From: Pontiellaceae bacterium B1224
GTDB lineage: Bacteria; Verrucomicrobiota; Kiritimatiellia; Kiritimatiellales; Pontiellaceae
NCBI GenBank assembly: GCA_029432815.1
Contig: JAROBA010000003.1
Location: 62,001-126,000 of the forward strand
Direction of reading: 5' to 3'
DNA: 64,000 bases
The position numbers were made by a program, and so were the translations under genes. The notes beneath the pieces are model-generated. The model ran no database searches. It was not told the DNA's origin and saw only the letters and a list, made by a program, of their open reading frames with translations. This document shows, piece by piece, positions 33,782-59,373 of this stretch; the stretch's first letter is position 1; each line of letters opens with the position of its first letter.

Positions 33782-33808
33782 AAAATGATGTTTTGATGGA
33801 GGCGTTAA

Positions 33809-34639
33809 ATGCAGGCAGCAACGATTAAACTTTTTCTTCCGACGGGCGATGCCACGGCTATCCGCACGGCGGAAATCTCAAACTGGACGGGCAAGGCGAT
33901 TGCCGGGCCGCGCACGGAGATTGATACGTTGGTGCAGCGCCCGGAACTCGACAGCCCCGGCGTGTATCTGCTGCTGGGTCATGATGATGTCGGTGATCCG
34001 CTGATCTACATCGGCGAAGCGGAATGCGTAAAAACCCGTTTGAAACAGCATAAGGATAAAGAGTTCTGGGTGCAGGTGATCGCATTTACCAGCAAGGATG
34101 AAAATCTGACCAAGGGCCACATCAAATATCTGGAAGCGGAACTGATCAGGCAGGCGAAGGCGGTGGGGAAGGGCACGCTTGATAACAGTCAGGGCGGCAA
34201 CGCCGTCCTGCCCGAATCCGATATCGCCGACATGCAGGTGTTCCTCTCCAAGATGTTCCAATTGCTGCCGGTGCTCGGAACCGATGTCTTTGCCGCGACC
34301 TCTACGAAAAAACCGAAACCGGCGAACCTGTTGTACTGTAAAAAAGGTGCTGCAGTCGCACAGGGACAGCGCTCGCCGAAAGGCTTCGTCATTTTCAAGG
34401 GATCACAGGCTGTTCGGAATGAAACCGCCTCGATTCCGCCGAGTATCCGCGCGGCCCGCTCCAAGCTCATCGAGAAGGGCATTCTGCTCCTCGATGGCGA
34501 TGTGTACGTCTTCACCGCAGACCATGAATGCACCAGTCCCAGCTTAGCGGCGGCCATCGTGCGCGGAGGTTCCGCCAATGGCATGACGGAATGGAAAAAC
34601 AAGGCGGGAAAAACACTGAAAACGATCGAGTCTGAATAA
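33809..34639 (+). CDS. GIY-YIG nuclease-fold protein with C-terminal DUF4357
   Basis: The 276-residue protein has a GIY-YIG-like domain at about residues 45-130 (GVYLLLGHDDVGDPLIYIGEAECVKTRLKQH, with GVY and YIG motifs and the Arg of the active site) and a DUF4357 domain at about 190-270 (GFVIFKGSQAVRNETASIPPSIRAARSKLIEKGIL, SPSLAAAIVRGGSANGMTEWKNKAGKTL). Fusions of this kind are frequent in accessory and defence-rich regions; cutting activity is inferred. A damaged second copy of its first 180 bases lies at 36321-36505. Confidence 0.82.
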   Translation: MQAATIKLFLPTGDATAIRTAEISNWTGKAIAGPRTEIDTLVQRPELDSPGVYLLLGHDDVGDPLIYIGEAECVKTRLKQHKDKEFWVQVIAFTSKDENLTKGHIKYLEAELIRQAKAVGKGTLDNSQGGNAVLPESDIADMQVFLSKMFQLLPVLGTDVFAATSTKKPKPANLLYCKKGAAVAQGQRSPKGFVIFKGSQAVRNETASIPPSIRAARSKLIEKGILLLDGDVYVFTADHECTSPSLAAAIVRGGSANGMTEWKNKAGKTLKTIESE

Positions 34640-36320: not shown

Positions 36321-36518
36321 GAGATGATGTTTCGATGGAGGCGTTAAATGCAGGCTACGACGATTAAACCTTTTCTTCCGACGGGCGATGCCACGGGTAT
36401 TCGCAAGGCGGAAATCCCAAACTGGACGTGCGTACGGAAATCGATACGTTGGTGCAGCGCCCGGAACTCGACAGCCCCGGTGCTGGGTCATGATGATGTC
36501 GGTGAGTCTTCCTTCTAA
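36321..36518 (+). pseudogene. Damaged second copy of the GIY-YIG gene start
   Basis: From 36321 the sequence matches 33783-33994 (upstream region, start codon at 36348 and first about 60 codons). Relative to the intact gene it lacks 19 bases after codon NWT and 11 bases before LGHDDVG; the first causes a frameshift and the second restores frame. Homology ends at about 36505 and a stop follows at 36518. It shows that this locus arose by duplication or by insertion of the DUF6880 segment next to a repeat-prone gene. Confidence 0.85.
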
Positions 36519-36722
36519 TAAGGGCTGCTTAAATCGGAAGCTTTGTAATCGGTTTAAACCTAAAAAGTAATTTTTCCGAATAAAGGTACTGATGAATAAG
36601 ATCTTTACAATGTAAGCGCATACAACTATAAGTTGACGTACTTTTTTGATGAGTTTGGTTGTCGATAACAGGCAGGGAAGCCGTTTTTGTTTTACGGCTC
36701 AAAAGCTGCAGTTGGAGTGGTT
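36519..36722. other. Upstream region of the first GH16 gene
   Basis: There is no gene. It holds the operator-promoter at 36604-36632 and the ribosome site TTGGAGTGG before the ATG at 36723. Confidence 0.6.
36604..36632 (+). promoter_or_regulatory. LacI-type operator inside promoter (laminarin regulon site 1)
   Basis: TTTACA, 17 bp containing TGTAAGCGCATACA (36611-36624), then TATAAG. The operator occupies the spacer between -35 and -10, so a bound LacI protein would exclude RNA polymerase. It precedes the first GH16 gene. Confidence 0.82.
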
Positions 36723-37544
36723 ATGAAAGGCATGACGAAGGATATTTTAGAGAGCCCTAAATACATCGTGAGTAAGACCCCGGTTTGGAGCGAGGAATTC
36801 AAGTCAGGCACAGTCCCTGACATCCGTGTGTGGTCATATGATCTGGGTGACGGCGGCTGGGGAAATGACGAGTTAGAGACGTATACCCATGTTGCAGCAA
36901 ATATCAGAGTTGCAGACGGAAATCTTATTATTACAGCGCTGAATGAGGGGGACCGGTTTACGTCGGCGCGGATTAAGACGGAGGACAAGTTTGCGTTCAG
37001 GTACGGAACGCTGGAGGCGCGGATTCAGGTTCCTGATTTGGGCAACGGTTTGTGGCCGGCGTTATGGGCCTTGGGGCACGATTTTTCCAGTATCGGCTGG
37101 CCGGCCTGCAGTGAGATTATTGTGATGGAAATGGGGGTTGAAGGCGCCATTGAAGAGGAGAGGGCTAATCGGCGGATCACATCCGCGGCTCACTGGGAAG
37201 AGAAGGGAGCGCACCAAACCTATGGGGCTAACCTGGACCATCCTTCTGATGTGAACGGATCGTTTCATGTTTATCGTATGGAGTGGACACCGACCGCGAT
37301 TACGACCTATGTGGATGATGTGCAGATTTGGGCGATGAATATATCCGATATTCCGGCCCTGCACGAACCGCACTTTCTGCTCCTTAATATGGCGGTTGGA
37401 GGAAAACATACGGGCGTATGCGACGTGGCCGGAATCACGGCTCCTTTGCCGGCGGAATATCGGGTTGATTACATCCGGCTTTTCGATAATGGATTTACAG
37501 CGTTGTACGGTTCCTCCGTGGATCATTTGACTATGGCCGACTAG
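36723..37544 (+). CDS. GH16-family protein without signal peptide and with altered catalytic motif
   Basis: The 273-residue protein is a single GH16 beta-jelly-roll (VWSEEFKSG, YDLGDGGWGNDELETYT, FRYGTLEARIQVPDLGNGLWPALWALG, MEWTPTAITTYVDD, FLLLNMAVGG). The catalytic line is S-E131-I-I133-V-M-E136; laminarinases have E-x-D-x-x-E, so the central Asp is replaced by Ile. No signal peptide precedes the fold: the start at 36723 has a GGAG ribosome site and an in-frame upstream start adds no hydrophobic core. It may be an intracellular enzyme of weak activity or a binding protein. It carries its own operator-promoter. Confidence 0.85.
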   Translation: MKGMTKDILESPKYIVSKTPVWSEEFKSGTVPDIRVWSYDLGDGGWGNDELETYTHVAANIRVADGNLIITALNEGDRFTSARIKTEDKFAFRYGTLEARIQVPDLGNGLWPALWALGHDFSSIGWPACSEIIVMEMGVEGAIEEERANRRITSAAHWEEKGAHQTYGANLDHPSDVNGSFHVYRMEWTPTAITTYVDDVQIWAMNISDIPALHEPHFLLLNMAVGGKHTGVCDVAGITAPLPAEYRVDYIRLFDNGFTALYGSSVDHLTMAD

Positions 37545-37587
37545 GCAATGGGGTACATTTGCGCATTTCGATTAATGAACCATCTGT

Positions 37588-37601
37588 TATAAGCGCTGTC
37601 G
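37588..37601 (+). promoter_or_regulatory. Weaker LacI-type operator (laminarin regulon)
   Basis: TATAAGCGCTGTCG matches the operator core AAGCGCT with degenerate flanks, 66 bp before the second GH16 gene. I cannot place a good -35/-10 around it. Confidence 0.5.
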
Positions 37602-37666
37602 CATAAACCCTATGCATGCTATTCAATATTACATTGCCATCGGCAGCCCAATAAACTGGATATATT

Positions 37667-39256
37667 ATGTATAGCACTAATCAACTTGGCCGACACGCTG
37701 CGCAATGTTTAACGCGAGGCCTTATAGTGTTTCTGGCTGCCACCTGCATACTGGCCTCAGCGCAGGAAATACCGGGCTGGACGCTGGTCTGGCAGGATGA
37801 GTTTACACAGGCGAACGGCACGCCACCGAATTCTGCGAACTGGGGCTATGATACTGGAGGTGGGGGATGGGGGAACAGTGAATTACAAGTGTATACGACC
37901 AGCACGAATAATGCGCGGATTGAGAACAATCAGCTGGTGATTGAAGCACGGGAGACCAGTTCCGGTAACTACACCTCGGCCCGCCTTCTGACGAAGAATA
38001 AGTGGGCTTGGACGTATGGCCGCATGGAGGCTCGAATCAAGGTTCCCTACGGGCAAGGTATATGGCCTGCATTTTGGATGCTTGGAGCTGACTACGATTC
38101 AGTGGGTTGGCCCAACTGCGGGGAGATCGATATCATGGAACACATCGGCAGCAAACCGCAGACGGTTTTCGGTACCATCCATGGTCCCGGCTACTCGGGC
38201 GATGACTCCTTTGGTGCCTCAATCAAGATTGTTCCGGATATCACCGATGATTTTCACGTGTTCACGGTCGAATGGGAGGCGGACAGTATCAGGTGGTATA
38301 TGGATGGAATACTCTACAATATTGCCACCCCGTCCAATGTGGCCCCGGACGACTGGGTGTTTGATCACCCGTTTTTCTTCCTCCTCAATCTTGCAGTGGG
38401 AGGCCAATGGCCTGGGTACCCGGATAGTACCACGGTGTTTCCCCAGCAGATGCTGGTGGACTATGTTCGGGTCTACTCCTTGGGAGATCCTCCGGCCCCA
38501 GGCACAAATTTATTTGAAAACCCCGGGTTTGAGTCCGGTACGTCCGACTGGGCCCTGAACCTCAGCGGGGGTACGGCGTCGGCCTCTGCTGCTTATGCTC
38601 ACGGTGGTACCGATTCGCTGGTCATCGATAGTACGGGTGCGGGGGATTGGTCATCCCCAAACGCGTCGCAAAGCTTTCCGGCCAGCCCCGGGGATGTATT
38701 CAATATTCAGGGATATATGCTGAATTCGGCGGGGCTCCCCATTACAGACGATTCTTTCGGACTGTTTAAGATCGAGTTCAGAGACAGTGTGGGTATGGTG
38801 CTTGAACCGGCCTCAATCGACATAGGAACTTCGGCGGACGGTCCCTACTACGGTGCGGAATCCACGCCATTCCTCAACGCTGATCGTGCGACGAACTTGT
38901 GGATTTTCAGTGAGGCGCAAGGGGAGGCTCCTGAGGGTACCGTCGAGGTTAGCTTCTACTTGTTAAACGTGAACCCGCCCGGGAACTCCGGCCCCTCCAT
39001 GTACTTCGATGATATTCAGGCGATGTTGCTCGGAGAACCCGTCTTGCCTGTCACATTGAGCTCGGCTGTTTCGGGCGGGGACATTCAGATCAGTTTTCTA
39101 ACGGAGAGCGGCGTTAGCTATCAGATGGCTTATAAGAGCAGTCTGACCAATGCAGACTGGACTCCCATTGAAACTGTACTGGGGGATGGAGACACGAACT
39201 CAACCATCTATCCGGCAAGCTCTCCTGCTGGCTTCTATAAAGTTTTGATTCCCTGA
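37667..39256 (+). CDS. Secreted GH16 beta-1,3-glucanase (laminarinase) with CBM-like domain
   Basis: The 529-residue protein has a signal peptide (GLIVFLAATCILASAQE), a GH16 domain (about residues 38-270) with intact catalytic G-E153-I-D155-I-M-E158, a galactose-binding-like/CBM4-like module (about 280-455, NLFENPGFESGTSDWALNLSGG), and the C-terminal module shared with neighbouring proteins (about 465-529, ending FYKVLIP). It should cut beta-1,3-glucan chains outside the cytoplasm. A weak operator lies upstream. Confidence 0.92.
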   Translation: MYSTNQLGRHAAQCLTRGLIVFLAATCILASAQEIPGWTLVWQDEFTQANGTPPNSANWGYDTGGGGWGNSELQVYTTSTNNARIENNQLVIEARETSSGNYTSARLLTKNKWAWTYGRMEARIKVPYGQGIWPAFWMLGADYDSVGWPNCGEIDIMEHIGSKPQTVFGTIHGPGYSGDDSFGASIKIVPDITDDFHVFTVEWEADSIRWYMDGILYNIATPSNVAPDDWVFDHPFFFLLNLAVGGQWPGYPDSTTVFPQQMLVDYVRVYSLGDPPAPGTNLFENPGFESGTSDWALNLSGGTASASAAYAHGGTDSLVIDSTGAGDWSSPNASQSFPASPGDVFNIQGYMLNSAGLPITDDSFGLFKIEFRDSVGMVLEPASIDIGTSADGPYYGAESTPFLNADRATNLWIFSEAQGEAPEGTVEVSFYLLNVNPPGNSGPSMYFDDIQAMLLGEPVLPVTLSSAVSGGDIQISFLTESGVSYQMAYKSSLTNADWTPIETVLGDGDTNSTIYPASSPAGFYKVLIP

Positions 39257-39304: not shown

Positions 39305-40294
39305 CTAGCGGGTGGTCTTTCGGGGAATGAGTGAAGTTTCCATGGAAATGCTGGAAGGCTTCAGGTCTTTATTCTTAATGCGTTCCGCGACCAGTCGCGT
39401 GGCGGTTTCTCCGATCTGCTCCATGGGGAAGCTTACAGTGCTCAGTCCGATATATTGGCCGATTTCGTTGTTGTCGAAGCCGATAAGTTGAATGTCCTCG
39501 GGAATCCGCTTTTCGGTTTCTGCGAGAACGTCGAGGACGCCGAGCGCCATGGCATCGTTGAACGCGAAGATCGCCTCGGGCAGGGCGTTTTGCCGGCCGA
39601 CATACTCCTCAAAAGCCTTGCGCCCGCCCTCATGGTAAAAATCGCCGGTCACAATCTTGACATCAATTTCAAGCGAAGCGTCCTGAATGGCTTGCTGCGC
39701 GCCTTCGAGTCGTTTATTGCTGTCATGATTGTCCTTGGGCCCTGTCAGCAGGAGTAGCGACTGCGGTTTATTTTCAAGAAGGTGGGTCACTGCTCGGTAG
39801 GCACCCTGGAAATTATCGATCAGGACAGAGTCCATGCCCTCGTTGATTCCATTTTGTCCGATAAGCGCGATCGGGATATCATCTCCGGCCAGTTCCCGGA
39901 CTTTATCCGGTCCGAAAAATGTGTTGTTCATTAGGATGATGGCATCGGTTCGCCCTTCCCGGCAGAGGGATTGCAGGTAGTCCAGAAGATCCGTTTCGGA
40001 GTGATAAAAGGAAATCAGCAGTTTTAATTTTTCTTTTGTGGATACGTTATCAATTCCGCGCAAAACTTTTACATAGTAGCCATTATCAAGCAGCGGCAGG
40101 ATAATCCCGATCGTGTCGGTTTTTCCGCCGGCCAGCTTGCGTGCCGCCTGATTGGGGCGGTAGTTGAGCTCTTTCATGGCCTGATGAACCCGCTCCCGAG
40201 TAGCCTCTTTGACGAGCCCGCTTCCGTTGATTACCCGGGAAACGGTGGCGGTAGAAAGCCCGGTTTTTTCACAAACATCGTAGAGGGTGGCCAT
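39305..40294 (-). CDS. LacI-family transcriptional regulator of the laminarin locus
   Basis: The 329-residue protein has the LacI DNA-binding N-terminus TLYDVCEKTGLSTATVSRVINGSGLVKEATRERV with hinge helix NYRPNQAARKLAGGKTDTIGIILP, and a periplasmic-binding-type effector domain to residue 329. The hinge type fits operators with a central CG such as the AAGCGCTT found at seven places here. The effector is probably a glucan breakdown product. An operator copy overlaps its own promoter region, which suggests autoregulation. AAAAGGAAAAT precedes the ATG. Confidence 0.93.
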   Translation of the reverse strand: MATLYDVCEKTGLSTATVSRVINGSGLVKEATRERVHQAMKELNYRPNQAARKLAGGKTDTIGIILPLLDNGYYVKVLRGIDNVSTKEKLKLLISFYHSETDLLDYLQSLCREGRTDAIILMNNTFFGPDKVRELAGDDIPIALIGQNGINEGMDSVLIDNFQGAYRAVTHLLENKPQSLLLLTGPKDNHDSNKRLEGAQQAIQDASLEIDVKIVTGDFYHEGGRKAFEEYVGRQNALPEAIFAFNDAMALGVLDVLAETEKRIPEDIQLIGFDNNEIGQYIGLSTVSFPMEQIGETATRLVAERIKNKDLKPSSISMETSLIPRKTTR

Positions 40295-40313: not shown

Positions 40314-40329
40314 ATTGTAAGCGCTTCCT
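40314..40329 (-). promoter_or_regulatory. LacI-type operator at the lacI promoter
   Basis: ATTGTAAGCGCTTCCT lies 20 bp upstream of the lacI start codon, adjacent to a TTATAA that could be its -10. Confidence 0.7.
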
Positions 40330-40733: not shown

Positions 40734-40762
40734 TTTACAATGTAAGCGCTTTCATATAAAAC
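40734..40762 (+). promoter_or_regulatory. LacI-type operator inside promoter (laminarin regulon site 2)
   Basis: TTTACA, 17 bp with TGTAAGCGCTTTCA (40741-40754), then TAAAAC. Flanking sequence (ATTTACAATGTAAGCGCT, then GCATTTTGCAACATGAGAG) is nearly the same as at site 3, so whole promoters were copied. It drives the large operon beginning at 40927. Confidence 0.85.
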
Positions 40763-40828
40763 GCATTTTGCAACATGAGAGAACCGGATAAGAGTTATGG
40801 TTTCGAGAGTGAGTGCCGGGCATAAAAT

Positions 40829-40842
40829 TGTAAGCGCTGTCA
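40829..40842 (+). promoter_or_regulatory. Second LacI-type operator upstream of the operon
   Basis: TGTAAGCGCTGTCA lies 88 bp downstream of the operator at 40741, centre to centre, and 85 bp before the start codon. Two operators at this spacing would allow looping or a roadblock. Confidence 0.75.
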
Positions 40843-40926
40843 GAATGTTGCTTAGTTTGATTCATAGACGAGATAGCAGGGTGCTTCGAGGATGACGCTT
40901 TGCTTCAAAACAATAGGAGAGGTAAA

Positions 40927-43104
40927 ATGAAGATTATAACATTAACGACTACTCTGTTGGCAGGTTGCTTCAGCATGAGCGTACATGCGGGGTTCGAACA
41001 GTTTGCCCCCGTTACTGGGGAAGCCAATGTCTTTTACGCCACTTCCAGCGGAAATCCTGGTGATTACTGGTTTTTTTCAACGTGGGGCTTGGCAGATCTG
41101 CAGAGTATCACTACCGATGACCGGACGTTTGAATTAGCGCCTAATATTAACGCGTACAATGCATCCGACCCCGATTGGTCAAATGGATCCGGAGATGGCA
41201 ATGCATGGATGGACATGACGACGTTGTTCCGGGCAAATCCTATTCTCCCCAACAGTACGAACGCTACATTTAACGTTACCGTGGATGCTAACGATCTCGA
41301 TGAACGCTATTCGGTGGTAGCCTTTGTCAGGGTGCGTGATAATTCGGGTGAATGGCCGGTTGTCAGGGAAGATACGGTGACCCTAACCACACCGGGAACA
41401 TACTCTCTTTCTGTAGACATTTATCCTGGCAATACCAGCGGCTTCCACACATGTGATGCCGGATTCACCATGTCTGGTCTGAATGCCAATCCCACCAGCG
41501 ATTGGGGCTCGATGACCGTTACCGCAACGGAGTTGTCCATTGGTATTAATGATGTTATTCCTCCCAACCCATCTCCGATGACGTTTGAGACCGCTCCGTA
41601 TGCCATCAGCGATCAGGCGATCAGCATGACCGCCACCACCGCGATTGATGATTTTGCGGACGTTGAGTATTACTTCACCTGCACCGCAGGCGGTGGCAAT
41701 GACAGCGGCTGGCAAAGCAGCACAAATTATGTAGACACCGGTTTGGCGGCCAACACATTATACAGCTATACGGTGACAGCGCGCGACACGAGTAATCAGA
41801 ACGAAGGGTTGGCATCATCTGCCGCTTCGGCCACGACGCCTGCCACAGATACCACAGCCCCTTCGCCGAACCCGATGACCTTTTCAGTTGCTCCCGAAGC
41901 AGGAATGACTCTGGTCAGTATGACAGCGACAACTGCAACCGATGTTTCCGGAGTTGAGTATTACTTTGCCTGTACCTTCGGTGGCGTTGGCGCGAATGAC
42001 AGCGGCTGGCAGAGCAGTCCTGTTTATGTAGACACGGGGTTGGAGCCTTCTTCGAGCTACACCTATACGGTGACTGCGCGGGATTTGAGCGCTGCTACGA
42101 ATGTAACAGCAGCTTCGGCCGCTGTTTCGGTAACAACATCGGCTTTGGAACCGTGGATGGTCAATTCGCTTACAAACTACACCGGCGACACTTGGCAGGC
42201 GATGACTGCTTTTGATCTGAATGTTGACGGACTGGAGTATGGTTCTGAATTAGACGATCCGGATTCGGCGATCACGTTTGACGGCTCCGGGGCGACTTTC
42301 GGCGGATTAAATACGGCTACGTATTATACCCGCAATGTGTTACGTACGCTCGCGCAGGATTATGATGACGGCAGCTTTGAGGCCTACGCGACCATCGTCT
42401 TTAACGGAAATTCAGATCAGGCAGCCTTTATCGGGATGGGACAGGGTATTGTTGCTCCTTCTGTTAACGGTAACTGGGGTGTGCCTGATTTGGCTCTGGG
42501 TGGGGTGCAGTCCGTTTTAGGTGAAATTAAAACCAGTTTGTCGTCAAACCCGGATCATCAGGGCTGTGCCATGTTGAAGATTGTAGATGGGGGGGAAGAC
42601 ACTAAATACGAAACCGATCCCGTACCTACTGTTGGCACGTTCAGAGTAAAACTGACCTATGATGCGGATCTCAATGAGGCAACCATCAAGGTAGATACAG
42701 ATTATGCCGGCGGTGCTTTTGTTGCCGATCTCGATCTGGGTACGATTGATACCAGCGGTTCAGGTGGAACCAATATGTTCTATGGTGCTCCCGTTCGCGT
42801 TTATGTCGGCGGTGGCGAGGGCGCGGTTGTCCGCGATCTCGTGATTAAATCTTCTCTGAATGAAGTAGTCATTGGTGATGTTTCACTTGGGGGTTCAGGT
42901 TTGGTTTCAGGTGGCGGGATGGAGCTCTCGTGGGATGGCTGGGCAGGCCAGACCTATGACGTACAATATAAATCCGATCTGATGAATAGCGCATGGACGA
43001 CGGATACATCCGCTTCAGACATTTACGTTACCGAAAGTGGAACAACATCGGCAACATCCACGGTGAGTGGGGCTCAGGTGTACTATCGGGTGATTGCTAA
43101 ATAA
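40927..43104 (+). CDS. Secreted Fn3-like repeat protein of the laminarin operon
   Basis: The 725-residue protein has a signal peptide (MKIITLTTTLLAGCFSMSVHAG). An N-terminal beta-rich domain of about 200 residues has no family I can name. Two similar Fn3-like units follow (about 215-315 and 318-415: MTATTAxDxxxVEYYFxC, SGWQSS, YTYTVTARD), then a jelly-roll-like domain (about 420-640) and the shared C-terminal module (AGQTYDVQYKSDLMNSAWTT to YYRVIAK). Placed first in the operon, it is probably a glucan-binding surface or extracellular protein. Start at 40927 has AGGTAA before it. Confidence 0.8.
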   Translation: MKIITLTTTLLAGCFSMSVHAGFEQFAPVTGEANVFYATSSGNPGDYWFFSTWGLADLQSITTDDRTFELAPNINAYNASDPDWSNGSGDGNAWMDMTTLFRANPILPNSTNATFNVTVDANDLDERYSVVAFVRVRDNSGEWPVVREDTVTLTTPGTYSLSVDIYPGNTSGFHTCDAGFTMSGLNANPTSDWGSMTVTATELSIGINDVIPPNPSPMTFETAPYAISDQAISMTATTAIDDFADVEYYFTCTAGGGNDSGWQSSTNYVDTGLAANTLYSYTVTARDTSNQNEGLASSAASATTPATDTTAPSPNPMTFSVAPEAGMTLVSMTATTATDVSGVEYYFACTFGGVGANDSGWQSSPVYVDTGLEPSSSYTYTVTARDLSAATNVTAASAAVSVTTSALEPWMVNSLTNYTGDTWQAMTAFDLNVDGLEYGSELDDPDSAITFDGSGATFGGLNTATYYTRNVLRTLAQDYDDGSFEAYATIVFNGNSDQAAFIGMGQGIVAPSVNGNWGVPDLALGGVQSVLGEIKTSLSSNPDHQGCAMLKIVDGGEDTKYETDPVPTVGTFRVKLTYDADLNEATIKVDTDYAGGAFVADLDLGTIDTSGSGGTNMFYGAPVRVYVGGGEGAVVRDLVIKSSLNEVVIGDVSLGGSGLVSGGGMELSWDGWAGQTYDVQYKSDLMNSAWTTDTSASDIYVTESGTTSATSTVSGAQVYYRVIAK

Positions 43105-43248: not shown

Positions 43249-45399
43249 ATGATCTATAATAAAGCAACGGCGCTCGGCCTCGCGGTCATACTCAGTGCGG
43301 GTATATCGGCCCATTCAGCCGTGATATGGTCGGATGAATTTGATGATACGGTGATAAACAAAGACAACTGGACGTATGACGTGGGCGGGCACGGATTTGG
43401 CAACGGTCAAATGGAATACAACACCGCGCGGTCGGAAAATTCCTACATCGATAATGGCAGTCTGGTCATTAAAGCCATCCGGGAAAGTTATTCCGGCAAT
43501 GAGTTTACTTCGGCCCGTATGATTACACAGGGACGCTTCGCATTTAAGTACGGCAGTCTGGAAGCCCGGATCAAAATGCCTGACACGGAAAACGGGTTGT
43601 GGCCCGCATTCTGGCTGCTGGGCAACAACTTTCCCGGTGTTGAATGGCCGCATTGCGGAGAAATGGATATCGTTGAGATGGGATCCGAGGCGGGTATTGC
43701 AGAAGGGAAGCAGCAGGAAAGATTCAACTGCGCGTTGCACTTTTCGAATGCCGCCGAAGAAAAACAAAGCAATGTGGCGTGGGAAGATGCTCCAGTGGAT
43801 CTGAGTCTGGACTATCACCTCTACAAAGTGTCATGGACCCCGACTGATATCACCTTCTATCTGGATGGAGCCGTCGTTGCAACCTGGGATATTACGGCAG
43901 ATTATATGGCGGAGTTTCATCAGCCTCACTTCATGATTCTGAACCTCGCCATCGGCGGATGGCCGGACACATACACAGGTGTTACCGATCCGGCCGGGGT
44001 AACGGCTTTGCCTGGCGCGGGATCCAGTGCCATCATGCAGATCGACTGGGTGCGACTTTCCGACAATCCATACACGGAACTTTACCTGGGCGAAGACGCA
44101 GAAGAGTCCGGAAATTTCGGCATTTTTACAGAAACAACTCCGGTCGATAGTTCACTCGTTTTCGGCGACGATACGGCAACGAACTGGCCATATAGCGACG
44201 AGGCGGCCTTGTACCTCTGGGCGGATACGATGACTGTTTCCGACACACCGGCGACACCTTCCGAAGGGACTGAGTGTGTGACGTTCAATGTCCAAAGCGT
44301 TGGCTGGCTGGGCATGGGGGTCTTTATGCCGAACTTCCGCAATATGGAAAACTATTCGGACGGAACCCTGCACTTTGATATTCAGACCACTTCGAGCGAC
44401 ATCTTGAAAGTTGGCGTTCAAAGTTCCAGAGCCGGTCAGTTCTGGCTTCCCATGGGCGATGAAACAACCGAGTTCGGGTTTGCCCGCGACGGCGATTGGC
44501 ACTCAATCAGCGTTCCGCTGAACCGGTTCGCCAATACCGACTTTAAGACGATCCAACAGATGTTTATGTTGCTGGCTGATTCGGCGACACCTGGCACGGC
44601 GATTTCACTGGACAATATCTGGTGGGAACCGAGTGTGGTACGGGCAAGACCCTCAGCCGGTAGTTTCGGGGTCTACACCGAGACCGGCACCAACAAGAGT
44701 GCGGGGGAATTTGGTCTGGGCGTGGACGGCGACTTTTTCGTTTGGGCCGACACGTTGGACCCTGCTGTGCAGGACCCATATGAAGGCAGCGAAAGCCTTA
44801 GTTTCACATCGGCACCTGGTCTGTCCTGGTTTGGCGCGGCCTTTACGCCGAACGTGAAATATGATCTTTCGGCGTTCGACAATCCGAATGGTACCTTGAA
44901 TTTTGCCATGAAGACGAGTTCCTCGGTTCCGTTTCAGGTCGGTATGAAGAGCGGCAACATGGATGGTGTGGGGCAGAAATGGATTTCCTTCGAGGCCGGC
45001 AGCGATCCCTACGGATTTGTTCGTGATGGAAACTGGCACATGATCCAGATTCCGACTTCAAACTTTGTCGCGGATGTGGATCTCTCTCAGATGAGCCAGC
45101 TCTTCCAGATTCTGGGTACAGAGGAGGCGATTTCTGATATTGAGTTGGACGATATTTACTATGCGGGCGGCAGGGCGTTTAAAACCAATGTGGTGTCAGC
45201 CTTGATTCAGGACGGGGTTGGCATCAGCTGGCCGTCGACCGACGGTTCGAGCTACACCGTGCAATGGGCGGAAGCGATCAACACCAATACGGTTTGGAAT
45301 AGTGTGAGTCCTGCTGTTGAGGGCGATTGGACCACTAAAACCGTATTCGATCCGACCATCGACCCGAGCAGATTCTATCAGGTCGTTGAATTACCGTAA
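43249..45399 (+). CDS. Secreted multidomain GH16 beta-1,3-glucanase
   Basis: The 716-residue protein has a signal peptide (ALGLAVILSAGISAHSA), a GH16 domain (about residues 25-275) with intact C-G-E138-M-D140-I-V-E143, and two tandem accessory domains of similar sequence (about 285-465 and 470-645: GIFTET/GVYTET, LYLWADT/FFVWADT, WLGMGVFMPN/WFGAAFTPN, SGDGTLHFDI-like). These resemble the ExoP-type sugar-binding module. The shared C-terminal module ends it (FYQVVELP). Role: depolymerising laminarin while held to the substrate. GGGAG precedes the ATG. Confidence 0.92.
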   Translation: MIYNKATALGLAVILSAGISAHSAVIWSDEFDDTVINKDNWTYDVGGHGFGNGQMEYNTARSENSYIDNGSLVIKAIRESYSGNEFTSARMITQGRFAFKYGSLEARIKMPDTENGLWPAFWLLGNNFPGVEWPHCGEMDIVEMGSEAGIAEGKQQERFNCALHFSNAAEEKQSNVAWEDAPVDLSLDYHLYKVSWTPTDITFYLDGAVVATWDITADYMAEFHQPHFMILNLAIGGWPDTYTGVTDPAGVTALPGAGSSAIMQIDWVRLSDNPYTELYLGEDAEESGNFGIFTETTPVDSSLVFGDDTATNWPYSDEAALYLWADTMTVSDTPATPSEGTECVTFNVQSVGWLGMGVFMPNFRNMENYSDGTLHFDIQTTSSDILKVGVQSSRAGQFWLPMGDETTEFGFARDGDWHSISVPLNRFANTDFKTIQQMFMLLADSATPGTAISLDNIWWEPSVVRARPSAGSFGVYTETGTNKSAGEFGLGVDGDFFVWADTLDPAVQDPYEGSESLSFTSAPGLSWFGAAFTPNVKYDLSAFDNPNGTLNFAMKTSSSVPFQVGMKSGNMDGVGQKWISFEAGSDPYGFVRDGNWHMIQIPTSNFVADVDLSQMSQLFQILGTEEAISDIELDDIYYAGGRAFKTNVVSALIQDGVGISWPSTDGSSYTVQWAEAINTNTVWNSVSPAVEGDWTTKTVFDPTIDPSRFYQVVELP

Positions 45400-53474: not shown

Positions 53475-53503
53475 TTTACAATGTAAGCGCTATCATTTAA
53501 AAC
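53475..53503 (+). promoter_or_regulatory. LacI-type operator inside promoter (laminarin regulon site 3)
   Basis: TTTACA, 17 bp with TGTAAGCGCTATCA (53482-53495), then TAAAAC. It precedes the PEP-CTERM gene. Confidence 0.85.
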
Positions 53504-53577
53504 GTGTTTTGCACCATGAGGAATAGTCCGAATGGAGTACATTGAATAGGTCAGACCTAGGAAAAGGAGTGAATAAG

Positions 53578-54222
53578 ATGAAAATTAAGATACTTGCAGC
53601 TTTTGCTGTGGCAACTGTAGTCGGTGTGGCTAATGCTGATGTTCTGGTACCGAACGGCAACTTCTCAGCCGGTGATGATGGAAGCTGGACTGTTGATGGC
53701 GGTGTTTGGGGATCTTCCGGAAGTTTTACACCCACTTTCGAGGCTACTGGCGGAAGCGGTGATAATGGTGGATATGGTCAAATGGAGGCAAATGGAGAGG
53801 TTTGGGCTATCTTTGTTAATCCTGCCGAGTCTCCTTCTGTTGGCGGCGGAATTCCGGTTGCTTCCCTTGGCATTGTCCCGGATGGAACGACATCCTACGA
53901 CTTCATGATCGACCTGAAGACCTTTGCCGGAACTGCTGGCGGTGGTATGAAAGTCGAAGGCTATAATGATGTTAACGGTTCGACATTCAACACGGGTGAT
54001 ATAAATTTCGGAGCTCATGCAGATTGGACTCAGGAATTAATTCCGGTGGTCGTTCCCGCTGATACCACAAAAATTGTATTTGTACCGCTTTGGGGTGCTG
54101 ATTCGACAATCGGGTATGACAATGTTGGCGTTGCCGGGGTTGTTCCGGAACCGGCTACACTGGGTCTGTTTGGTCTCGCGGGCGGGGCGATGCTTTTCCT
54201 GCGTCGACGTTTTCGCATATAA
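53578..54222 (+). CDS. PEP-CTERM sorted surface protein, carbohydrate-binding-like
   Basis: The 214-residue protein has a signal peptide (MKIKILAAFAVATVVGVANA) and a beta-sandwich-like body beginning VLVPNGNFSAGDDGSWTVDGG, an opening shared with CBM4/galactose-binding domains. The C-terminus is a PEP-CTERM signal: VPEPATLGLFGLAGGAMLFLRRRF (Pro-Glu-Pro, hydrophobic span, Arg cluster), to be cut by an exosortase. Its operator-promoter places it in the laminarin regulon, suggesting a glucan-binding surface layer protein. AAAAGGAGT is an excellent ribosome site. The exosortase is not in the window. Confidence 0.9.
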   Translation: MKIKILAAFAVATVVGVANADVLVPNGNFSAGDDGSWTVDGGVWGSSGSFTPTFEATGGSGDNGGYGQMEANGEVWAIFVNPAESPSVGGGIPVASLGIVPDGTTSYDFMIDLKTFAGTAGGGMKVEGYNDVNGSTFNTGDINFGAHADWTQELIPVVVPADTTKIVFVPLWGADSTIGYDNVGVAGVVPEPATLGLFGLAGGAMLFLRRRFRI

Positions 54223-54386: not shown

Positions 54387-54415
54387 TTTACAATGTAAGC
54401 GCTTTCATATATACA
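54387..54415 (+). promoter_or_regulatory. LacI-type operator inside promoter (laminarin regulon site 4)
   Basis: TTTACA, 17 bp with TGTAAGCGCTTTCA (54394-54407), then TATACA. It drives the sugar porter and phosphorylase genes, so uptake and phosphorolysis are co-controlled with the exo-enzymes. Confidence 0.86.
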
Positions 54416-54517
54416 GGTTTTTTAACCAGTGGGTCAGGTGTGAGTGTGTTTCGCGGTGCTTTGATATTTTGTGAAGTGAAAAGTTAATCGCCAGAGAGTT
54501 GATTGATTAAAAGAAAA

Positions 54518-56056
54518 ATGAAGAAAAGCAAGTTGCTGTATACAGGTCTGGTATCGTTGGTTGTCGCGCTTGGCGGCTTCCTGATGGGATTTGATGCCGG
54601 TGTAGTTTCAGGAGCAAATCCATTTTATAAGGACTACTTCGGTCTCAACGACTGGGCACTGGGCTGGTCGGTTGGCTGTCTGACCTTCGGGGCCATGTTC
54701 GGCAATGCGATTGCAGGACCGCTGGCCGATCGAATGGGGCGCAAACCGGTGCTCAGCATAGCCGCGCTGTTCTATTCCCTTTCGGCGATCAGCTCCGCTC
54801 TTGCAACGAACTTCAGTTTTTTCATTATTGCCCGAATGCTCGGCGGTGTCGCTGTGGGATTAGCCCTCCTGATTGCTCCGGTATACATTGCCGAGATTGC
54901 GCCATCGAAGCTCCGCGGTCGATTTGTCTCGTTCAATCAGCTCAATATTGTAATCGGGTTCTCTGCCGTCTTTTTCGTGAATTATTACATTCTCAAGCTG
55001 GCAGAATCGGGCGCACTCGAAATCCTTAACAAGCCCAACTGCTGGCGCTGGATGCTCGGCGCTGAAATCGTGCCGGCCTTGCTCTATTTTATTTTTCTGT
55101 TTTTTGTGCCGCGCAGTCCGCGTTGGCTGGCGCAGCATGGTCGCGAAGAAGAAGCGCTGCTTGTATTAAACAAGGTGGTCAGTGCAGAAGAAGCAACAGC
55201 ATCGCTTGATTCCATAAAGGAACACATTGCGAAGGATAATCAGGCCAAGCCGAAATTCAGTGAACTGTTTCAACGAAATATGCGCTTTATTATCTTCATT
55301 GCTCTCGGCCTCGGTTTCTTTCAACAGATCACCGGAATTAACGCGATCTTTTTCTATGCGCCAACGATTTTCGAAAAGACCGGCATCACGCAGGAAAGCG
55401 CTTTTTTGCAGACCATCATCATTGGGCTGGTGAACCTTGGGTTCACGTTGCTGGCAATCTACATCATCGACCGCTTCGGTCGTAAGCCGCTTCTTCTGAT
55501 AGGTACTGCCGCGATGTCGGTTTGTCTTTTCACCAACGCATGGGCGTTCCACTCCGCCACCTATGTATTGACGGAGGAAGCCGTTCAGGAGCTTCCTGCA
55601 AACGTGAAAGAATCGCTGGTTCCAATGATTGGAAAAACGTTTAAATCGCAATCGGAATTTACCGATACGTTGGATCAGTCCGGAGCTGCCGAACACAGTG
55701 CAGACCTGGTAAATCCCTCCATGAATATCAGCGCCCGTTTGGTACTCATTGCCATCATGGGTTATATCGCCGCATTTGCGATCTCACTGGGTCCCGTGAT
55801 GTGGGCCATGTTCTCCGAAATTTTTCCCAATCGGTTGCGCGGTCTTGCGATTTCATTGGCCGGCCTGTTCAACTCGTTAATCAGTTACGCCGTGCAGCAG
55901 ATTTTTCCCTGGGAGCTGGCGACGCTGAGCCCGGCTGGAACCTTTCTCATTTTCGGCGTTTTCGCGACGCTCGCTTTTATTTTCACTATCAGGTTCATTC
56001 CGGAAACCAAGGGAAAATCCCTCGAAGAACTTGAAGAAATTCTCATTAAGGATTGA
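54518..56056 (+). CDS. Major facilitator sugar porter (XylE/GLUT-like)
   Basis: This protein of about 512 residues has 12 membrane helices and sugar-porter signatures: GGFLMGFDAGVVSGA, GPLADRMGRKPVL (loop 2-3), ARMLGGVAVGLALLIAPVYIAEIAPSKLRG, FFVPRSPRWLAQHG, GFFQQITGINAIFFYAP and IPETKGKSLEELEEIL. An insertion of about 65 residues between helices 9 and 10 is unusual (EEAVQELPANVKESLVPMIGK...). It imports glucose or small glucosides. Ribosome site is weak; a TTG at 54503 is in frame. One dyad copy lies inside at 55620. Confidence 0.9.
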   Translation: MKKSKLLYTGLVSLVVALGGFLMGFDAGVVSGANPFYKDYFGLNDWALGWSVGCLTFGAMFGNAIAGPLADRMGRKPVLSIAALFYSLSAISSALATNFSFFIIARMLGGVAVGLALLIAPVYIAEIAPSKLRGRFVSFNQLNIVIGFSAVFFVNYYILKLAESGALEILNKPNCWRWMLGAEIVPALLYFIFLFFVPRSPRWLAQHGREEEALLVLNKVVSAEEATASLDSIKEHIAKDNQAKPKFSELFQRNMRFIIFIALGLGFFQQITGINAIFFYAPTIFEKTGITQESAFLQTIIIGLVNLGFTLLAIYIIDRFGRKPLLLIGTAAMSVCLFTNAWAFHSATYVLTEEAVQELPANVKESLVPMIGKTFKSQSEFTDTLDQSGAAEHSADLVNPSMNISARLVLIAIMGYIAAFAISLGPVMWAMFSEIFPNRLRGLAISLAGLFNSLISYAVQQIFPWELATLSPAGTFLIFGVFATLAFIFTIRFIPETKGKSLEELEEILIKD

Positions 56057-56067
56057 AGGAGTTAGTT

Positions 56068-59000
56068 ATGACACAGAAAAAAGTATGGGTAGGCAACTGC
56101 GAGCTGAACACGTCCAATGAAGCGGTGAAGGGCGACTATGTCGAACGTGACGGAGAACAGTTTTACCGCATCCAGAACCACGACTTGATGGCTCCGTTTT
56201 TTATGAGCATCGTCAGCGATTCCAACCATTGGATGTTTATCTCCAGCAACGGGGCACTCACCTGCGGGCGACGCAATCCCGAAAGCGCGCTGTTCCCGTA
56301 CTACACCGAAGACAAGATTCAGGACGCGCAGGATCAGACCGGACCCAAAACAATTATTCTGGTGGAAGGCAAAGAAGCGGATTCTCTGTGGGAACCCTTC
56401 TCCAGCCGCTATGCCGGTGTTTATAAAACGGAGCGGAATCTCTACAAAAATATTCCCGGCAACAAGCTGGTGTTCGAAGAAATCAACCACACCTTGAAGC
56501 TTTCGTTCAGCTATACATGGATGTCCAGCGACCGCTTTGGTTTTGTGCGTGAAGCAGTGCTCTCTAATCTGGGAAGCGAGCCGTCGTCTCGCTGTCGGTT
56601 TATCGATGGACTGCAAAACCTGTTGCCTTCAAACGTCGATCGCGACCTGCAGACCGGTTTCAGCACATTGGTCGATGCCTATAAGAAGAGCGAGCTGCTG
56701 CCTGAAAGCAGCATCGGTATCTATGCACTCAGTTCGGTGCCGGTCGACCGTGCAGAGCCCAGTGAATCGCTAACCGCAAATACGGTCTGGTCGATGGGAC
56801 TGGATAAGCCGGTCTATTTACTGAGCGTCCAACAATTGGAAAAATTCCGACGAGGGGAATCCGTCGAGCAGGAAGATCATAAGCACGGGGTGCGCGGTGC
56901 CTACTTCGTGCAGTCGGAAGCCTTGCTCGCCGGCGGTGAAAGCAAAGAGTGGTTTATGGTGGCCGAAGTGGATCAAAATGCCTGTGACATTGCCGAGCTG
57001 AATAAACAACAGGCTTCGTCATCCGAGTTGCTGGCCGACGTTAAGCTGGGGACTGAAAATCTTAAAGCGATTGTGGCTGAGGCCGACGGAATTCAGACCG
57101 GTGGCGACACGCTCCAGACAGCGCGGCATTTTGCCAATACCCTTTTCAATGTGATGCGTGGCGGCATGTTTGATGATGGCTATCGGGTCACCAAGGCCGA
57201 CCTGTTGGATTTTATTACTACGGCCAACCGGCCCGTTGCCGCCAAACTGGTGGTCGATGCGTTGCCGGACACGTTCCAATATTCGGAAGGGCTGGCCTTT
57301 TTCCAGGCATTGGAAGACCCGGAGCTGGAGCGGCTCTATCTGGAATATATGCCGCTGACCTTCAGCCGTCGTCACGGCGATCCGAGCCGCCCGTGGAACA
57401 AGTTCTCTATTGAGACGCGCAATCCCGACGGATCGAAGAAGCTGTCGTACGAAGGGAACTGGCGCGACATCTTCCAGAACTGGGAAGCGCTGGGTATCTC
57501 CTATCCCGGTTTTTTCGAAAGCATGATTACTAAGTTTGTCAATGCGACAACGGCCGATGGCTACAATCCCTATCGCATCACGCGTTCCGGCATCGACTGG
57601 GAGGTGGATGATCCCAACGATCCGTGGTCGTATATCGGCTACTGGGGCGATCACCAGATTATCTATCTGCTCAAGCTGCTGGAACAGTCCGAGTCGTTCC
57701 ACCCCGGCAAATTACAGGAGCTTTTATCGAAAGAAATCTTCGTCTACGCGAACGTCCCGTACCGCATCAAATCCTACGAAGCTTTGCTGGCCGATCCCTG
57801 TGAAAGTATTGAATTCGATGATGCGGCCCATGCCGCGATCATGGAGCTGAGTAAAACCGTCGGCTCCGATGGAAAGTTGCTGTACTTGCGCGATGAAGGA
57901 ATCTATCGCGTCAACCTGACCGAAAAACTGCTCGTCCCGCTGTTGGCCAAGTTGTCGAATTTTATTCCCGAAGCAGGTATCTGGATGACCACTCAGCGGC
58001 CGGAATGGAACGATGCGAACAACGCACTCGTAGGATCCGGCGTCTCAATGGTGACGCTTTATTATATACGTCGATATCTGAATTTCTGCATCCAGTTGTT
58101 CGGCAGCACTGAGATGGACGAGGCTACGGTATCGACCGAAGTGGAACAGCAGCTTTGCGAAATGTTTGATGCTTTAAAGGCTCATTTGGAGCAGCTGCAA
58201 ACCGGCTTTACCACTCAGCAGCGGCGTGGGCTGCTCGATGCGTTGGGCAAAGCGGGCGAGCATTACCGTGAAGCGATATACCAACACGGTTTCTCAGGCA
58301 ATAAAACCGGGTTGTCGATTGCCGAACTCATTGCATTTCTGCAGCTGGCTCTGAAGTATGTGGATCAGACGATTGCTGCCAACCGGCGCGAGGACGGGCT
58401 TTACCATGCCTATAACCTGATGAAGGTTGATGAGGATGGCGGCATCTCCATTCGCTATCTCTACGAAATGCTGGAAGGCCAGGTGGCCGTTCTTTCATCC
58501 GGTAAGCTGGATGCGGCCGAAAGCCTGGAGGTGCTCAGAGCACTTCGGACCAGCTCGCTCTATCGACCCGACCAGCATAGCTATATTCTCTATCCGAACC
58601 GGAAACTAGCGGATTTCATGGACAAGAACTGCATTTCTGTTGCTGATGAGGTGGATGCGCGCATCGCATCCCGCGACTGTAACGGCGTGCTGCATTTCAA
58701 ACCGGAATTCCGTAATGCAGGCATGCTGGATGAGGCATTGCAGACACTAAACTGCTCTGAGAGCGACCGCAAAAAATGGCTGAGTGTTTATGAGCAGACT
58801 TTCGATCATCAATCCTTCACCGGCCGATCCGGTACATTCTACAAATACGAGGGATTAGGCTCCATCTATTGGCACATGGTTTCCAAGCTGTTGCTGGCGG
58901 TGCAGGAAATCTGCATCGCAGCAAAAGGAACCGAGCTGCAGAAGCCTTTGCAGGAATGTTACTACGATATCCGTAAGGGCATCGGCGCGCATAAGAGCGT

Positions 59001-59373
59001 GCTGGAGCAGGGCGCATTCCCGACCGATCCGTATTCACATACCCCGTCCATGATGGGTGCGCAGCAGCCCGGCCTGACCGGGCAGGTGAAGGAGGACTTT
59101 ATCGTCCGTCTGTTCGAACTGGGTGTCCGCGTTAAAAACGGTTGTCTGAGCTTCGATCCCTTCCTTTCGGACGAAAGTAACGTCACCTTCACCCTGTGCA
59201 CCGTGCCGGTGGAAATTCGAGAAGCCGACGCGGATGCCATCCGCTTGGTACTCGCCGATGGCGAAATAGTAGAGATCGAGGGACGCGTAATTCCACCTGA
59301 TTTAAGTGCGGAAATATTCGGCCGGACCGGAGCCATTGAGCGGATCAGCGTCGCCTTTTGCTCCGCAATTTGA
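56068..59373 (+). CDS. Beta-1,3-glucan phosphorylase, GH149/GH161 type
   Basis: The 1,101-residue cytoplasmic protein has no signal peptide. A central block WNKFSIETRNPDG, NWRDIFQNWEALGISYPGFFESMITKFVNATTADGYNPYRI and GIDWEVDDPNDPWSYIGYWGDHQIIYLLKLLE (about residues 470-540) resembles the (alpha/alpha)6 catalytic barrel of inverting glycan phosphorylases related to GH94. Length of about 1,100 favours GH149, whose members split beta-1,3-oligoglucans with phosphate to glucose-1-phosphate. I cannot exclude GH161 from sequence alone. It follows the sugar porter (AAGGAG seven bases before the ATG) in one regulated unit. A dyad copy encodes FQALE at 57301. Confidence 0.82.
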   Translation: MTQKKVWVGNCELNTSNEAVKGDYVERDGEQFYRIQNHDLMAPFFMSIVSDSNHWMFISSNGALTCGRRNPESALFPYYTEDKIQDAQDQTGPKTIILVEGKEADSLWEPFSSRYAGVYKTERNLYKNIPGNKLVFEEINHTLKLSFSYTWMSSDRFGFVREAVLSNLGSEPSSRCRFIDGLQNLLPSNVDRDLQTGFSTLVDAYKKSELLPESSIGIYALSSVPVDRAEPSESLTANTVWSMGLDKPVYLLSVQQLEKFRRGESVEQEDHKHGVRGAYFVQSEALLAGGESKEWFMVAEVDQNACDIAELNKQQASSSELLADVKLGTENLKAIVAEADGIQTGGDTLQTARHFANTLFNVMRGGMFDDGYRVTKADLLDFITTANRPVAAKLVVDALPDTFQYSEGLAFFQALEDPELERLYLEYMPLTFSRRHGDPSRPWNKFSIETRNPDGSKKLSYEGNWRDIFQNWEALGISYPGFFESMITKFVNATTADGYNPYRITRSGIDWEVDDPNDPWSYIGYWGDHQIIYLLKLLEQSESFHPGKLQELLSKEIFVYANVPYRIKSYEALLADPCESIEFDDAAHAAIMELSKTVGSDGKLLYLRDEGIYRVNLTEKLLVPLLAKLSNFIPEAGIWMTTQRPEWNDANNALVGSGVSMVTLYYIRRYLNFCIQLFGSTEMDEATVSTEVEQQLCEMFDALKAHLEQLQTGFTTQQRRGLLDALGKAGEHYREAIYQHGFSGNKTGLSIAELIAFLQLALKYVDQTIAANRREDGLYHAYNLMKVDEDGGISIRYLYEMLEGQVAVLSSGKLDAAESLEVLRALRTSSLYRPDQHSYILYPNRKLADFMDKNCISVADEVDARIASRDCNGVLHFKPEFRNAGMLDEALQTLNCSESDRKKWLSVYEQTFDHQSFTGRSGTFYKYEGLGSIYWHMVSKLLLAVQEICIAAKGTELQKPLQECYYDIRKGIGAHKSVLEQGAFPTDPYSHTPSMMGAQQPGLTGQVKEDFIVRLFELGVRVKNGCLSFDPFLSDESNVTFTLCTVPVEIREADADAIRLVLADGEIVEIEGRVIPPDLSAEIFGRTGAIERISVAFCSAI

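What the first reader, a model, noticed from the sequence alone, without database searches (positions are those of the whole stretch)
36723..37544. GH16 protein lacking both the signal peptide and the central catalytic Asp
The GH16 active-site line E-x-D-x-x-E reads E131-I-I133-V-M-E136 here, while both GH16 neighbours keep the Asp. No signal peptide precedes it. It still has its own operator-promoter, so it is an expressed regulon member. A cytoplasmic glucan sensor, a binding protein or an enzyme with changed chemistry (transglycosylase) are possible.
Basis: partly seen in the sequence, partly recalled or inferred. Interest (0 to 1): 0.6.

Follow-up and report, generated by a model that had tools for sequence, protein, structure and literature searches.

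The report
Cytoplasmic laminarinase lacking its helper aspartate
In a glucan-digestion gene cluster of a Pontiella-like bacterium, one laminarinase copy has lost both its export signal and one active-site residue; a sister species keeps the same changes, so it looks like a repurposed, probably still active, internal enzyme rather than an error or a dead gene.

Summary
Window 36723-37544 encodes a complete GH16 domain whose ExDxxE line reads E131-I-I133-V-M-E136, and no signal peptide is possible in frame (stop at 36666-36668, no hydrophobic leader). It is neither an error nor an obvious relic. The orthologue in a sister Pontiellaceae species (63% identity, separate MAG) also has Ile there with a different codon, also lacks a leader, and sits behind the same LacI-type operator directly before a secreted GH16. 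The two form a clade (93/96) and are nearly as constrained as their secreted relatives; only three columns conserved in all nine secreted homologues changed in both, one being the Asp. About 70 other GH16 domains keep the Asp, and no other GH16 in 346 class genomes has a hydrophobic residue there. Both catalytic Glu, the His and the Trp platform remain. Published mutants show this Asp is a helper: Asp-to-Ala in a GH16_3 enzyme cost 1.7-fold in kcat. Most likely this is a cytoplasmic, still competent GH16, perhaps slow or transferase-biased, acting on imported laminari-oligosaccharides beside a GH149 phosphorylase. A non-hydrolytic glucan binder is the main rival. Expression, location and activity are inferred, not shown.

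The parts
36723..37544 (+). GH16-I: cytoplasmic GH16 domain protein, 273 aa, ExIxxE instead of ExDxxE
37113..37130 (+). active-site strand codons E131-I132-I133-V134-M135-E136
36666..36668 (+). in-frame stop codon closing the upstream frame (no in-frame signal peptide)
36611..36624 (+). LacI-type operator TGTAAGCGCATACA upstream of GH16-I
   Evidence: equivalent in G017 at L036:13006-13019
37667..39256 (+). secreted GH16 with C-terminal module, directly downstream (EIDIME, signal peptide)
39305..40294 (-). LacI-family regulator; same position in G017
40316..40329 (.). operator-like site 22 nt before the lacI start
40741..40842 (.). two operator-like sites (40741-40754, 40829-40842) before the secreted protein gene 40900-43104
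43249..45399 (+). second secreted GH16 (EMDIVE) of the cluster
54394..54407 (.). operator TGTAAGCGCTTTCA before the sugar transporter and phosphorylase genes
54503..56056 (+). MFS sugar transporter
56053..59373 (+). GH149-type beta-1,3-oligoglucan phosphorylase, no signal peptide seen (cytoplasmic by inference)
   Evidence: 1156 bits to 6hq6

Best explanation
GH16-I is a cytoplasmic GH16 enzyme that arose by duplication of a secreted GH16 laminarinase of the cluster, followed by loss of the signal peptide and replacement of the helper Asp by Ile. It is controlled with the laminarin regulon through the LacI-type operator. It keeps nucleophile Glu131, acid/base Glu136, His157 and the Trp111/Trp115 platform, so it most likely still binds and cleaves (or transfers), perhaps slowly, beta-1,3-gluco-oligosaccharides brought in by the regulon's transporters, shortening them for the GH149 phosphorylase. 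Shown: sequence, conservation, operator, gene order, fold model, regulon content. Inferred: expression, cytoplasmic location, activity, substrate, and that Asp-to-Ile slows deglycosylation.
For: Orthologue with the same Ile and no leader; clade 93/96; dN 0.28 with saturated dS, comparable to the secreted pair G017/G004 with dN 0.24. The target keeps 90-92% of columns invariant among secreted relatives, against 88-96% for those relatives left out one at a time. All 32 invariant columns of a 24-row alignment are kept, among them E131, E136, H157, W111, W115. Confident GH16 model, pLDDT 90.9; PtLam laminarinase Z 38. Operators in both species, none expected; ATGA overlap with the secreted GH16 in G017. 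GH149 phosphorylase in the regulon and in the G017 genome. The Asp is a helper: D381A only 1.7-fold lower kcat in a GH16_3 enzyme (PMC10318527); D143N active overnight (PMC9771727). A leaderless, presumably cytoplasmic endo-enzyme is described in a Muricauda laminarin study (MlGH17B, PMC13188888).
Against: Published mutants are Ala or Asn, not the bulkier Ile, and D143N showed no activity in the short assay, so loss of most activity is possible. Retained Glu could also serve binding. Only two orthologues are known. Other genomes with the GH149 gene (G004, G032, G003) show no such GH16, so it is not required for phosphorolysis.
Confidence: 0.5

Rival explanations
1. GH16-I is a cytoplasmic non-hydrolytic beta-1,3-glucan binding protein: the Ile disables turnover and the retained cleft binds imported oligosaccharides, buffering or presenting the inducer to the LacI-family regulator next door.
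For: Specific loss of one active-site acid with the rest of the cleft kept; first gene behind the operator and in the same cluster as lacI in both species; non-catalytic GH16_4 binding proteins are a precedent (PMC6827312).
Against: Both catalytic Glu are kept in both species over saturated synonymous divergence, whereas known GH16 binding proteins lose one or both; loss of the helper Asp is a weak way to remove activity.
Confidence: 0.27
2. The gene is decaying: export was lost, constraint relaxed, and the Asp was lost in a copy on its way out.
For: The target also has Gly130 to Ser; only 2 of 29 family genomes have the gene; partly duplicated DNA lies just upstream; the orthologue keeps slightly fewer invariant columns (85-89%).
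Against: Intact ORFs in two species, dN 0.28 with saturated dS, conserved operator and gene order, most invariant columns kept.
Confidence: 0.1
3. It is exported after all, by an unrecognised leader, an upstream frameshift in the assembly, or a non-classical route, and acts outside the cell.
For: Nearly all collected GH16 proteins carry a leader; no dedicated signal-peptide predictor was available.
Against: Two separate MAGs agree; only 98 and 74 nt lie between operator and ATG, and the gene's own frame there encodes no hydrophobic leader in either species.
Confidence: 0.08

Closest known systems
PtLam, marine planctomycete GH16 laminarinase (PDB 8xph, 8xpk)
   Same: Best structural and sequence match: Z 38, rmsd 1.2 A over 245 residues, 40% identity
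   Different: Its motif aligns as CGEADILE in phmmer, i.e. it keeps the Asp; solved as an active laminarinase
Secreted GH16 of Pontiellaceae G017 (L036:13876-15468)
   Same: 59-60% identical catalytic domain; overlapping next gene downstream of the orthologue
   Different: Signal peptide, C-terminal module, EIDVME
BpGH16MLG of Blautia producta (GH16_3), D381A mutant
   Same: Man-made equivalent of losing the motif Asp; still active (PMC10318527)
   Different: Ala not Ile; mixed-linkage glucanase with four CBM4 domains
GH16_4 non-catalytic glucan-binding proteins of animals and fungi
   Same: GH16 fold with altered active site
   Different: They lose one or both catalytic residues; here both Glu stay (PMC6827312)
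Rv0315 of Mycobacterium tuberculosis
   Same: GH16 protein shown to lack glucanase activity
   Different: Keeps Glu-171, Asp-173 and Glu-176; inactivity is ascribed to the groove shape (PMC4606783)

Membership tests
GH16 (sequence family) | Match above the Pfam PF00722 cut-off | tested here: met
   49.6 bits, cut-off 22
GH16 (sequence family) | beta-jelly-roll laminarinase fold | tested here: met
   AlphaFold model pLDDT 90.9, PtLam Z 38.2
GH16 (sequence family) | Nucleophile Glu and acid/base Glu | tested here: met
   E131 and E136 invariant in the 24-row alignment
GH16 active-site signature ExDxxE | Asp at the third position | tested here: not met
   ExIxxE here and in the orthologue; the residue is not essential for catalysis in a tested GH16_3 enzyme (PMC10318527)
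GH16_3 laminarinases | Subfamily placement by CAZy criteria | not tested
   nearest solved relatives are laminarinases such as PtLam and ZgLamC; CAZy subfamily models were not available
GH16_3 laminarinases | Endo-beta-1,3-glucanase activity | not testable with these tools
   needs an assay
Non-catalytic glucan-binding GH16 (GH16_4 type) | Loss of one or both catalytic Glu | tested here: not met
   both Glu kept in both orthologues
Xyloglucan endotransglycosylases (GH16_20) | ExDxE without bulge plus XET_C domain | tested here: not met
   bulged ExIxxE, no XET_C hit in Pfam

The most novel reading that the evidence does not exclude
Ile in place of the deglycosylation-assisting Asp makes the glycosyl-enzyme intermediate long-lived, turning an export-type laminarinase into a cytoplasmic beta-1,3-glucan transglycosylase or a covalent-capture sensor of imported glucan that feeds the LacI switch.
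Probability: 0.15. Interest if true: 0.7.

Novelty: new variant of a known kind. Interest (0 to 1): 0.42.

Why it matters
GH16 glucanases are mostly exported and nearly always keep the motif Asp. A conserved branch that has lost both, yet is otherwise almost as constrained as its active paralogues and is wired into the same regulon, is a natural experiment on what that Asp does, and a possible cytoplasmic step or sensor in laminarin use. It also cautions against calling GH16 proteins dead when only this Asp is missing.

Tried and rejected
Sequencing or assembly error: rejected, a separate sister-species MAG shares the change and two base changes are needed. Upstream leader in the G017 ORF (LVFVSAFIYTFFICDARA): rejected, that stretch overlaps the operator and no ATG/GTG/TTG precedes it in frame. 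Wider clade with a hydrophobic residue at the Asp position: none in 346 class genomes; three other pattern hits lie in unrelated ORFs that look like transposase proteins by eye. Viral contigs: nothing. XET-like transglycosylase by family: no XET_C, wrong motif. Sigma-70 promoter near the operator: not found. MAFFT alignment of the two upstream regions did not bring the operators into register and was not used. A dedicated signal-peptide predictor and CAZy subfamily models were not available.

Full report
What is there. Window 36723-37544 (+) encodes a 273-residue GH16 protein (PF00722, 49.6 bits). Its active-site strand reads E131-I132-I133-V134-M135-E136, so Ile replaces the Asp of ExDxxE. 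The frame is closed by TAA at 36666-36668; the first ATG gives MKGMTKDILESPKYIVSKTPVWSEEF, straight into the catalytic domain, and the only other start (TTG 36687) adds no leader. A simple hydrophobic-core scan of the collected GH16 proteins found leaders in nearly all; apart from ORFs cut by locus ends, the exceptions were this protein, its orthologue and one in G306 (L078). The two GH16 neighbours keep the Asp and have leaders.

It is conserved. In sister species G017 (Pontiellaceae MAG contig JAFGVP010000146.1) the orthologue is 63% identical, reads GELIAMEMG with Ile at the same position, and also starts without a leader, MGDETLEKPETAVITPPVW. The two form a clade with support 93/96 among the closest secreted homologues. 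The Ile codons differ (ATT, ATC) while secreted relatives use GAC/GAT, so the residue is kept through a synonymous change and two base changes separate it from Asp. dN is 0.28 with dS near saturation (2.8), similar to secreted pairs. Of 85 columns invariant in six secreted relatives, the target keeps 78 and the orthologue 75; against columns invariant in five of the six, the target keeps 90-92% and the orthologue 85-89%, where a left-out secreted protein keeps 88-96%. Four such columns differ in both: 114 (F to L), 116 (T to A/M), 133 (D to I) and 212 (E to A/Q); column 116 is Leu in the other GH16 type, so three are conserved in all nine secreted proteins. All 32 columns invariant in a 24-sequence alignment are kept, including both Glu, His157, Trp111 and Trp115.

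It is rare. About 70 other GH16 domains fetched from related and unrelated phyla keep the Asp. A DNA pattern for a hydrophobic residue at that position matched only these two GH16 genes in 346 genomes of the class; three further matches lie in unrelated ORFs. Viborg and co-workers report loss of one or both catalytic residues in 0.7% of GH16_3 (PMC6827312).

Regulon. TGTAAGCGC-type operators with at most one mismatch occur at 36611, 40741 and 54394, none expected in shuffles, with weaker sites at 40316, 40829 and 53482. In G017 an operator lies 74 bases before the orthologue's ATG, the secreted GH16 follows with an ATGA overlap, and lacI is convergent after it, as in the window. No sigma-70-like promoter was found beside the operator, so expression is inferred. 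The site at 54394 precedes a sugar transporter and a 1106-residue protein matching the beta-1,3-oligosaccharide phosphorylase 6hq6 at 1156 bits (6hq6 is a GH149 enzyme from my own knowledge), which shows no leader. G017 has it too. Other genes are a GPH symporter, GH30, GH17-like and GH2/GH158-like proteins: a beta-1,3-glucan cluster in which oligosaccharides are expected to reach the cytoplasm.

Mechanism. The AlphaFold model (pLDDT 90.9) matches laminarinase PtLam with Z 38. In a GH16_3 enzyme, Ala in place of this Asp lowered kcat only 1.7-fold, while either Glu, a Trp, a Leu and the His were essential (PMC10318527). In a red algal GH16 porphyranase the Asn mutant was active overnight but not in a 5-minute assay, and the authors assign the Asp to the deglycosylation step (PMC9771727). 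So the missing Asp does not mean a dead enzyme, and the two retained Glu argue for catalysis. I favour a cytoplasmic, retuned GH16 that trims or transfers imported laminari-oligosaccharides (0.5) over a non-hydrolytic binder or inducer buffer (0.27), a decaying gene (0.1) or hidden export (0.08). A leaderless endo-enzyme with transferase activity, placed in the cytoplasm by its authors, is described in Muricauda (MlGH17B, PMC13188888).

Limits. Two orthologues only, both from MAGs; no expression or activity data; the leader test was heuristic; the published mutants are Ala and Asn rather than Ile.

Noticed in passing
window 36324-36505: Partial copy (blocks 91-100% identical, about 180 nt with small deletions) of 33785-33996, the start of the DUF4357 protein gene 33809-34639, lying directly upstream of GH16-I.
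   Followed up: partly
L078 1474-2244 (G306:C1:1697536-1698270): Another GH16 without a leader, Asp intact, about 50 nt after a leader-bearing GH16 in a different family of the phylum: a possible second cytoplasmic GH16.
   Followed up: no
window 37587-37602: Weak operator-like core (TTATAAGCGCTGTCGC) before the secreted GH16 gene at 37667, beyond the 3-mismatch limit of the scan.
   Followed up: no
window 37667-39256 versus L036:13876-15468: The C-terminal modules of the two downstream secreted GH16 proteins look homologous, but the window's GH16 domain is only about 40% identical to GH16-I while G017's is 60%, suggesting domain replacement or a different paralogue.
   Followed up: no
window 53542-54222: PEP-CTERM-type secreted protein gene with an operator-like site at 53482-53495 inside the glucan regulon.
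   Followed up: no
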